Below are positions 26,109 to 28,446 of a stretch of DNA of 64,000 nucleotides, piece by piece. The DNA is from Candidatus Avelusimicrobium luingense (GTDB lineage Bacteria; Elusimicrobiota; Elusimicrobia; Elusimicrobiales; Elusimicrobiaceae): contig OOHK01000002.1 of assembly GCA_900315845.1 (NCBI GenBank), forward strand, positions 310,001-374,000. Reading direction: 5' to 3'. Under the pieces are notes generated by a model, which saw nothing but the letters and a program-made list of their open reading frames with translations, did not search any database and was not told the DNA's origin. The translations under genes and the position numbers were made by a program. Each line of letters starts with the position of its first letter. Positions within the stretch are counted from its first letter, which is position 1.

Positions 26109-26663
26109 TTAAGGCATTTCGTAAAAACGATATCCCCATTTCGTAGAAACATTGTTCGTTGCGTTAAACATTTTCCCGCAGAAACTTCCTTGGGCAAGAG
26201 CAAACCAACTTTGGCTTTCCACGCAATATAACTTTTTCTTTAGTACGCCGTCCGGATCGTCATGCACAAACATAAAGCCGCCGCCTTTATATGTACCGTC
26301 GCGAAAGACCGCGGAAGATAACAAAAAAAGCCCTGTATGGGACACATTGACCACCAACTCAAATTCGTTCGTTCGGCGCACAGCATTTGTTGAGGTTACA
26401 TGCAAGCCAAGTGAACTGGTAGAAGCCGAAGACAGGTGGTCAAAAGATAAATCCAACACGTCAAAATCATTGGCATATTCCCCATTGGCTAAAAAATAAG
26501 CCTCTTGGGCGGTAGCCAAACTTCTGGCAGCGGTTTGCAATTGTACCGAGCGGCTTTTCCACACCGTTTTTTGATATTGCGGCAAGGCTACGGCAGAAAG
26601 GATCCCGATAATCAACACGACAACTAATAATTCAATAAGGGTAAATGCTTTGTTATTTCTCAT
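26109..26663 (-). CDS. Type IV pilin-like / pseudopilin protein (pilin 2)
   Basis: 184 residues. Leader MRNNKA then FTLIELLVVVLIIGILSAV, the same N-terminus as the other three pilins. Predicted cleavage after Ala6; mature Glu5 present. Globular part has LANGEYANDFDVLDLSFD and a C-terminal Cys pair (LYCVES ... SFCGKMF). The upstream ribosome site is weak (GGGA). It has the palindromic promoter TACTACAATATAGTA at 26690, unlike the A-tract promoter of pilins 1 and 4, and shares the lepA terminator. Stand-alone gene. Confidence 0.85.
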   Translation of the reverse strand: MRNNKAFTLIELLVVVLIIGILSAVALPQYQKTVWKSRSVQLQTAARSLATAQEAYFLANGEYANDFDVLDLSFDHLSSASTSSLGLHVTSTNAVRRTNEFELVVNVSHTGLFLLSSAVFRDGTYKGGGFMFVHDDPDGVLKKKLYCVESQSWFALAQGSFCGKMFNATNNVSTKWGYRFYEMP

Positions 26664-27585: not shown

Positions 27586-28446
27586 ATGATATTAGAAGGC
27601 AGAACACTCGCTCAGCAAATTCGCGCGCCCTTACAAGAGCGCGCCGAAAGCGTGCGCCAAAAACTCGGCCGCCCGATTTGCTTATGTGCGCTTGGCTCGT
27701 CGGAAGATTACGCCGCAAGGCTGTATCTGCAAAAAGAAACCGATGCCGCTAAGAAAATCGGCATAGAAACTCATATTTTTGATATCAATAACTATACAAA
27801 TGCAGATGGTTTTTGTCAGGCCGTTAAAACATTAGCCACCCATGCGCAAACCGATGCCGTGCTCATCCCGCGCCCGTTACCGGAACAATTAGCCTTCAGC
27901 GATTTTGCCAATTATCTCAACCCCCGTCAGGATATTGACGGGATGTCTATTACCAATGCGGGCCGGTTGTTTTTATGCAAAACGTGGGAGCAAATAAAAC
28001 AACTCCCCGGGTTTGTACCTTGTACCGCTATGGCAGTTATGCGGTTGTTAGATTTTCATCACATTGATTTAGAAGGCAAAGAAGCCGTTGTTATCGGCCG
28101 CTCATCTACCGTAGGTCGGCCGCTGGCGCACTTGCTTTCGTGTAAAAATGCAACGGTCAAATTATGTCATTCCCGTACCGATTTACCGCGTGCCGTAAAA
28201 AATGCGGACATTATCTGCTCGGCGGCAGGAACGCCCGGTTTATTAAAAACCGAGTGGCTTAAAAAAGGAGCCGTCGTCATTGATATTTCCACCAATTGGA
28301 GCAACAACATGCTCTGCGGTGATGCGAACGCGCAAGAATTAGATGCAGCCGGCATTTTTTATTCGCCCGTACCCGGCGGAGTCGGCCCGGTAACGCTTGC
28401 GGTACTGCTGGAAAACATTGTATTATCAGGTGAACGGAAAATTTAA
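27586..28446 (+). CDS. folD: FolD-family methylenetetrahydrofolate dehydrogenase with altered catalytic site
   Basis: 286 residues, the two-domain FolD fold throughout: NADP-domain VVIGRSSTVGRPLAHLL, the C-terminal PVPGGVGPVTLAVLLEN and the conserved DIDGMSITNAGRL with its Asp. The canonical substrate-site motif YxxxK reads YLQKE here, so the catalytic Lys (K56 in human/E. coli numbering) is Glu, with a Lys one residue earlier. The conserved Q of VQLPLP is Pro (LIPRPLP). In studied FolD enzymes this Lys is needed for the cyclohydrolase step while dehydrogenase activity can persist, so a dehydrogenase-only enzyme, or another substrate, is inferred. Coupled to a downstream lipoprotein gene by a 9-bp gap. 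Confidence 0.85.
   Translation: MILEGRTLAQQIRAPLQERAESVRQKLGRPICLCALGSSEDYAARLYLQKETDAAKKIGIETHIFDINNYTNADGFCQAVKTLATHAQTDAVLIPRPLPEQLAFSDFANYLNPRQDIDGMSITNAGRLFLCKTWEQIKQLPGFVPCTAMAVMRLLDFHHIDLEGKEAVVIGRSSTVGRPLAHLLSCKNATVKLCHSRTDLPRAVKNADIICSAAGTPGLLKTEWLKKGAVVIDISTNWSNNMLCGDANAQELDAAGIFYSPVPGGVGPVTLAVLLENIVLSGERKI

What the first reader, a model, noticed from the sequence alone, without database searches (positions are those of the whole stretch)
27586..28446. FolD lacking the catalytic Lys and the conserved Gln
YLQKE replaces YxxxK, so Lys56 is Glu, and LIPRPLP replaces LVQLPLP, so Gln100 is Pro, in an otherwise well-kept FolD. Mutation of Lys56 in studied FolD enzymes abolishes cyclohydrolase activity. 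The protein may be a dehydrogenase only, with another protein making 10-formyl-THF, or may act on another substrate.
Basis: partly seen in the sequence, partly recalled or inferred. Interest (0 to 1): 0.6.

Follow-up and report, generated by a model that had tools for sequence, protein, structure and literature searches.

The report
FolD without its cyclohydrolase lysine
A folate enzyme that normally does two consecutive steps has, throughout a family of gut bacteria, lost the amino acid needed for the second step, and a separate gene of the right family is present that probably does that step instead.

Summary
The only FolD of this genome (27586-28446, 286 aa) has Glu51 where the catalytic Lys54 (E. 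coli numbering; human Lys56) should be and Pro95 for Gln98; Arg96 replaces Leu99. Tyr47, Asp118 and the NAD(P) motifs are kept. It is no local error: all 111 scorable Elusimicrobiaceae FolDs have K53-E54, and folD is under purifying selection. In published E. coli FolD mutants, K54N keeps about 19% dehydrogenase and no detectable cyclohydrolase; Q98H keeps about 1% cyclohydrolase. Elsewhere in the phylum a separate loss (K54Q) comes with fchA near folD in 16 of 17 loci. Outside it, several K54-less folDs lie next to fchA, and one is fused to it. Eight genomes with canonical FolD have no FTCD_C gene. Best reading: a dehydrogenase-only FolD, with the FTCD_C protein as cyclohydrolase. The FolD half is strong by homology; the partner's activity is inferred, since its closest relatives are FTCD cyclodeaminase domains. 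New variant of a known kind.

The parts
27586..28446 (+). folD (P0001, 286 aa): predicted monofunctional 5,10-methylene-THF dehydrogenase
   Evidence: PF00763 57.3 bits, PF02882 174.8 bits; AlphaFold2 model pLDDT 96.4; Z 37.5, rmsd 1.5 to C. jejuni FolD 3p2o
27724..27726 (+). Tyr47 codon (E. coli Y50), kept
27733..27735 (+). Lys50 codon (E. coli S53), invariant Lys in Elusimicrobiaceae; candidate 'shifted' lysine
27736..27738 (+). Glu51 codon at the position of catalytic Lys54 (human Lys56)
27868..27873 (+). Pro95-Arg96 codons at the position of Gln98-Leu99 (human Gln100-Leu101)
27937..27939 (+). Asp118 codon (E. coli D121), kept

Best explanation
This FolD is a 5,10-methylene-THF dehydrogenase that has lost the cyclohydrolase half of the usual bifunctional enzyme. 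In Elusimicrobiaceae, Lys54 became an invariant Glu and its helper Gln98 became Pro or Ala, while the residues that hold the folate (Tyr50, Asp121) and the NAD(P) site stayed. The enzyme would oxidise methylene-THF to methenyl-THF and release it. A separate, stand-alone FTCD_C/FchA-type protein (G000:C5:52610-53134, 189 aa, not in the window) would then hydrolyse methenyl-THF to 10-formyl-THF. The only 10-formyl-THF user found in this genome is Fmt, which formylates initiator tRNA. Shown here: the substitutions, their fixation in the family, the absence of a second FolD and of Fhs, the presence of the FTCD_C gene, and the same pairing in other lineages. Inferred: loss of cyclohydrolase activity (from mutants of the E. 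coli and human enzymes), and the cyclohydrolase activity of the FTCD_C protein.
For: (1) E. coli FolD K54N keeps about 19% dehydrogenase and has no detectable cyclohydrolase; Q98H keeps about 8% and about 1% (PMC5688156). Human K56E was still assayable as a dehydrogenase, with a more than 6-fold higher KM (PMC9173628). Gln98 positions the catalytic lysine (PMC3338484). (2) Fixed K53-E54 in 111/111 sequences, with Y50 and D121 invariant; purifying selection. (3) One FolD only, no Fhs in 37/37 genus genomes, FTCD_C in 37/37. (4) The FTCD_C protein keeps Asp412 (rat FTCD numbering) and PGGG in 22/22 family copies; its best PDB match is FchA 7vg4, E 3e-15. (5) Urocanase is absent in 37/37 genus genomes, so the usual source of formiminoglutamate for a cyclodeaminase is missing. 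(6) A separate loss in the phylum (K54Q) has a stand-alone FTCD_C gene within 5 kb of folD, same strand, in 16 of 17 loci, with metV-metF upstream in the example scanned. (7) Outside the phylum, fchA is adjacent to K54-less folD in Synergistaceae, Tissierellia and Ruminococcaceae, and one FolD::FchA fusion sits after fhs. (8) Canonical FolD: 0 of 8 genomes have FTCD_C.
Against: No activity was measured. In the FTCD_C tree the family's stand-alone protein groups with the fused FTCD cyclodeaminase domains of the class, not with the FchA side that holds M. extorquens FchA, and it scores far below the NCBIfam FchA cut-off (93 against 275 bits; but a metV-metF-linked fchA also falls below it, 142.8). 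A stand-alone formiminotransferase is also encoded, so a cyclodeaminase role is not excluded. Three K54E genomes lack a separate FTCD_C gene: G097 and G107 have it only fused, G109 (80% complete) has none. Only two K54 changes can be counted on the phylum tree, too few for a statistical test. In several Salinicoccus/Lacicoccus loci K54A folD has no fchA within about 2 kb. K53 is invariant and might substitute.
Confidence: 0.7

Rival explanations
1. FolD lost cyclohydrolase but nothing enzymatic replaced it: with purine synthesis gone, only Fmt needs 10-formyl-THF, and spontaneous hydrolysis of methenyl-THF is enough. The FTCD_C protein acts as a cyclodeaminase with the stand-alone formiminotransferase.
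For: The AICAR transformylase domain is absent in 37/37 genus genomes and Fmt is the only PF00551 protein in this genome. Carolacton-resistant E. coli K54N survives without cyclohydrolase, attributed to spontaneous turnover (PMC5688156). Formiminotransferase is present, and the tree puts the FTCD_C protein with the cyclodeaminase domains.
Against: E. coli K54N grows very slowly. Urocanase, the source of formiminoglutamate, is absent in the genus. The formiminotransferase already has another likely job, replacing the missing 5-FCL (PMC3223725). K54Q lineages and the FolD::FchA fusion pair K54 loss with FchA directly.
Confidence: 0.17
2. The active site was rearranged, not lost: the invariant Lys50, one position earlier on the same helix, perhaps with Glu51 and Arg96, does the work of Lys54, so FolD is still bifunctional.
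For: Lys at 53 is invariant in 111/111 family sequences while that position varies elsewhere; Glu54 is also invariant and Arg/Lys99 nearly so. Lys50 and Glu51 both lie on the modelled helix 42-57, one turn after Tyr47.
Against: Gln98, which positions the lysine, is also lost. An E. coli two-residue deletion (K54_K56delinsK), which still leaves a Lys at position 54, gave no detectable cyclohydrolase.
Confidence: 0.1
3. The protein no longer acts on methylene-THF and has another substrate.
For: It falls below the curated cut-off of every NCBIfam FolD model shown (best 217.7 against 333 bits), and the N-terminal catalytic domain is a weak match (57 bits).
Against: Folate-positioning Tyr50 and Asp121 and the GRSxxVGxP and PVPGGVGP motifs are kept. 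It is the genome's only FolD. The NCBIfam models are narrow: a K54-less FolD fused to FchA also falls below those shown. The fold is that of FolD over the whole length.
Confidence: 0.03

Closest known systems
Bifunctional FolD (methylene-THF dehydrogenase/methenyl-THF cyclohydrolase), e.g. C. jejuni 3p2o, E. coli 1b0a
   Same: Whole fold (Z 37.5, rmsd 1.5 A over 278 residues), Tyr50, Asp121, NAD(P)-binding motifs.
   Different: Lys54->Glu, Gln98->Pro/Ala, Leu99->Arg; cyclohydrolase predicted absent.
FolD + FchA arrangement of Clostridium perfringens and acetogens
   Same: A FolD accompanied by a separate FchA. The arrangement is described (Aluri et al. 2016, known here only through its citation in PMC7219735; fchA and folD listed together in the C. 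difficile Wood-Ljungdahl cluster, PMC3633928).
   Different: Here fchA is unlinked to folD, there is no Fhs, and the stand-alone protein belongs with FTCD cyclodeaminase domains. Whether those clostridial FolDs lack Lys54 was not tested.
Monofunctional dehydrogenases: Peptostreptococcus productus enzyme and yeast MTD1 (1edz)
   Same: Dehydrogenase without cyclohydrolase (P. productus as described in PMC6443876; yeast MTD1 from memory); 1edz shares the fold (Z 28.1).
   Different: 1edz is only 22% identical over the structural alignment. That it lacks the Lys and Gln is from memory, not tested.
FTCD_C family: FchA (7vg4) and the cyclodeaminase domain of FTCD (1tt9)
   Same: The proposed partner is a stand-alone FTCD_C protein with the PGGG motif and Asp412 kept. 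That Asp412 is catalytic is from memory.
   Different: Phylogenetically beside the class's fused FTCD C-domains, so whether it is a cyclohydrolase, a cyclodeaminase or both is open.

Membership tests
FolD family (PF00763 + PF02882) | Both domains over the Pfam cut-offs, in order | tested here: met
   57.3 bits against 32.8 and 174.8 against 27
FolD family (PF00763 + PF02882) | FolD fold over the whole chain | tested here: met
   pLDDT 96.4, Z 37.5 to 3p2o over 278 residues
Bifunctional FolD | YxxxK motif with catalytic Lys54 | tested here: not met
   Glu in all 111 scorable family sequences
Bifunctional FolD | Gln98 that positions the lysine | tested here: not met
   Pro or Ala
Bifunctional FolD | Tyr50 and Asp121 for folate binding | tested here: met
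   invariant
Bifunctional FolD | Both activities measured | not testable with these tools
   needs an enzyme assay
FolD + FchA split system | Separate FTCD_C/FchA gene in the genome | tested here: met
   G000:C5:52610-53134, E 6e-44
FolD + FchA split system | Partner groups with cyclohydrolases (FchA), not with FTCD cyclodeaminase domains | tested here: not met
   groups with the fused FTCD C-domains of the class; this does not decide activity
FolD + FchA split system | fchA next to folD (common in such systems, not required) | tested here: not met
   different contigs in this genome (C7 and C5); adjacent in other K54-less lineages
FolD + FchA split system | Cyclohydrolase activity of the partner | not testable with these tools
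   needs an enzyme assay

The most novel reading that the evidence does not exclude
In Elusimicrobiaceae an FTCD, inherited for histidine breakdown, was split; its cyclodeaminase half was recruited as a methenyl-THF cyclohydrolase as FolD lost that activity (Q98 first, then K54), and its formiminotransferase half took over from the missing 5-formyl-THF cycloligase. More generally, loss of Lys54 in a FolD would be a marker, readable from sequence, that FchA supplies the second step.
Probability: 0.45. Interest if true: 0.55.

Novelty: new variant of a known kind. Interest (0 to 1): 0.42.

Why it matters
FolD is routinely annotated as bifunctional; all 25 NCBIfam models shown for this protein are so described. 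Position 54 (with 98) gives a simple sequence test for when that is wrong and predicts the need for FchA. It also predicts resistance to carolacton, which does not bind E. coli FolD K54N. The family offers a natural case of how a bifunctional enzyme is split after gene loss in gut bacteria.

Tried and rejected
Sequencing error or pseudogene: rejected, invariant in 111 sequences with dN/dS 0.12-0.17. Hidden second canonical FolD: none in this genome. Fhs as the source of 10-formyl-THF: none in the genus. Statistical test of K54 loss against FTCD_C on the tree: only two independent changes, no power. Deciding cyclohydrolase or cyclodeaminase from residues: inconclusive, the family protein shares some columns with FchA and others with fused FTCD. 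Measuring whether Lys50 can reach the Lys54 site: model coordinates are not given. Papers on K56/Q100 human mutants (Schmidt 2000; Sundararajan and MacKenzie 2002) are not held. One scan call failed because of wrong coordinates and was repeated correctly.

Full report
The observation. The window encodes one intact FolD at 27586-28446 on the + strand, 286 aa. Against E. coli and C. jejuni FolD its motif Y47-L-Q-K50-E51 aligns with Y50-V-A-S-K54, so the catalytic lysine is Glu51, and LIPRPLP aligns with LVQLPLP, so Gln98 is Pro95 and Leu99 is Arg96. Tyr47 (Y50), Asp118 (D121) and the NAD(P) motifs are kept. Both Pfam domains score over their cut-offs, and an AlphaFold2 model (pLDDT 96.4) matches solved FolD structures over its whole length, best C. 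jejuni 3p2o (Z 37.5, rmsd 1.5 A).

Where it comes from. The nearest named records are uncultured Elusimicrobium and Candidatus Avelusimicrobium genomes, mostly from animal guts, family Elusimicrobiaceae. The genome is 1.46 Mb in 8 contigs, 94.5% complete.

How general it is. FolD sequences were gathered from the genus, family, order and phylum. In all 111 scorable Elusimicrobiaceae sequences position 53 is Lys, 54 is Glu and 98 is Pro or Ala; Tyr50 and Asp121 are invariant. The 111 are 55 from whole genomes and 56 from genome contigs, and the two sets overlap. They include a single-contig genome of 1,643,562 bases (G096), which I take from memory of its size to be Elusimicrobium minutum Pei191. 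Within the genus dN/dS is 0.12-0.17 in three pairs. The sister family f2 keeps Lys54 but has Gln98->Glu and Leu99->Arg or Lys in all 24 genomes scored, so the Gln98 change probably came first.

What the substitutions should do. In E. coli FolD, K54N keeps about 19% of dehydrogenase and has no detectable cyclohydrolase; Q98H keeps about 8% and about 1% (PMC5688156). In the human enzyme K56E has a KM more than 6 times higher in the dehydrogenase reaction and a nearly unchanged isotope effect (PMC9173628). Gln98 is said to position the lysine (PMC3338484). Losing both predicts a dehydrogenase without cyclohydrolase. That is inference from homologues, not a measurement on this protein.

What else the genome has. 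There is one FolD, no Fhs in 37/37 genus genomes and no 5-formyl-THF cycloligase in any of 61 relatives. The AICAR transformylase domain and urocanase are absent in 37/37 genus genomes. The only PF00551 protein in this genome is Fmt. A stand-alone FTCD_C protein of 189 aa is present here (G000:C5:52610-53134, P0002), and FTCD_C matches occur in 37/37 genus genomes, two of them in fragments at contig ends (G010, G013). A stand-alone formiminotransferase is also present. Formiminotransferases can replace the cycloligase (PMC3223725), which gives that gene a role without histidine breakdown.

The partner. P0002 matches M. extorquens FchA (7vg4, E 3e-15), T. maritima 1o5h and rat FTCD, and falls below the NCBIfam FchA cut-off. 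All 22 family copies examined keep PGGG and the aspartate aligned with rat Asp412. In a tree of 83 FTCD_C domains the family's stand-alone proteins group with the fused FTCD C-domains of class Elusimicrobia, not with FchA of M. extorquens or of most K54Q lineages (the two f25 sequences, on a very long branch, fall among them). The likeliest history is a split FTCD whose C-domain now serves as cyclohydrolase; a retained cyclodeaminase is not excluded.

The same pairing elsewhere. In families f16, f17, f18, f25, f27 and f28 of the phylum FolD has Gln at position 54. In 16 of 17 such loci read, a stand-alone FTCD_C gene lies within 5 kb of folD on the same strand; G202 has none in the 10 kb read. 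In L290 the order is a MetV-like protein, metF, fchA, folD. For G277, counted separately, the gene lies on another contig. Outside the phylum, K54A/I folDs from Synergistaceae, Tissierellia and Ruminococcaceae lie next to fchA, and one uncultured Eubacterium has a 499-aa FolD::FchA fusion after fhs. Several Salinicoccus/Lacicoccus loci have K54A without fchA within about 2 kb. Of eight phylum genomes with canonical FolD that were searched, none has FTCD_C.

Limits. Among 104 genomes scored, 69 have K54 lost with a stand-alone FTCD_C, 31 K54 kept without, 3 lost without and 1 kept with. But K54 changed only twice on the phylum tree, so no test can reach significance; relatedness accounts for most of these counts. 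Families f14 and f15, with two FolD paralogues each, and G202, G098 were left out of that count. The three lost-without cases are G097 and G107, with a fused protein only, and G109, 80% complete.

Verdict. The arrangement FolD + FchA is known (cited in PMC7219735); the family-wide K->E change, the probable FTCD origin of the partner and the recurrence of the pairing are what this adds.

Noticed in passing
G000 and 36 genus relatives: No AICAR transformylase domain in 37/37 genus genomes, and Fmt as the only PF00551 protein in this genome, so de novo purine synthesis by the usual route is probably missing.
   Followed up: partly
61 relatives: 5-formyl-THF cycloligase is absent in all 61 while a formiminotransferase domain is found in 56, which fits the published idea that formiminotransferase replaces the cycloligase.
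   Followed up: partly
L160:1887-3386 (+): A 499-aa FolD::FchA fusion with K54A, directly after fhs, in an uncultured Eubacterium.
   Followed up: yes
L251:268-1803 (-), L245:223-1131 (-), L209: Families f14 and f15 carry a second FolD-like paralogue with Met or Ile at position 54 and a NNSMRVGKP motif; its function is unclear.
   Followed up: no
L002 and L048 (G059): One f2 genome has both the f2-type FolD and a second, canonical K54/Q98 FolD, possibly acquired by transfer.
   Followed up: no
window 26109-26663 (-); L300:1085-1561 (+); L300:4279-4794 (-): Prepilin-like genes with nearly identical N-termini (FTLIELLVVVLIIG) occur near folD and on both sides of the formiminotransferase gene on another contig.
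   Followed up: no
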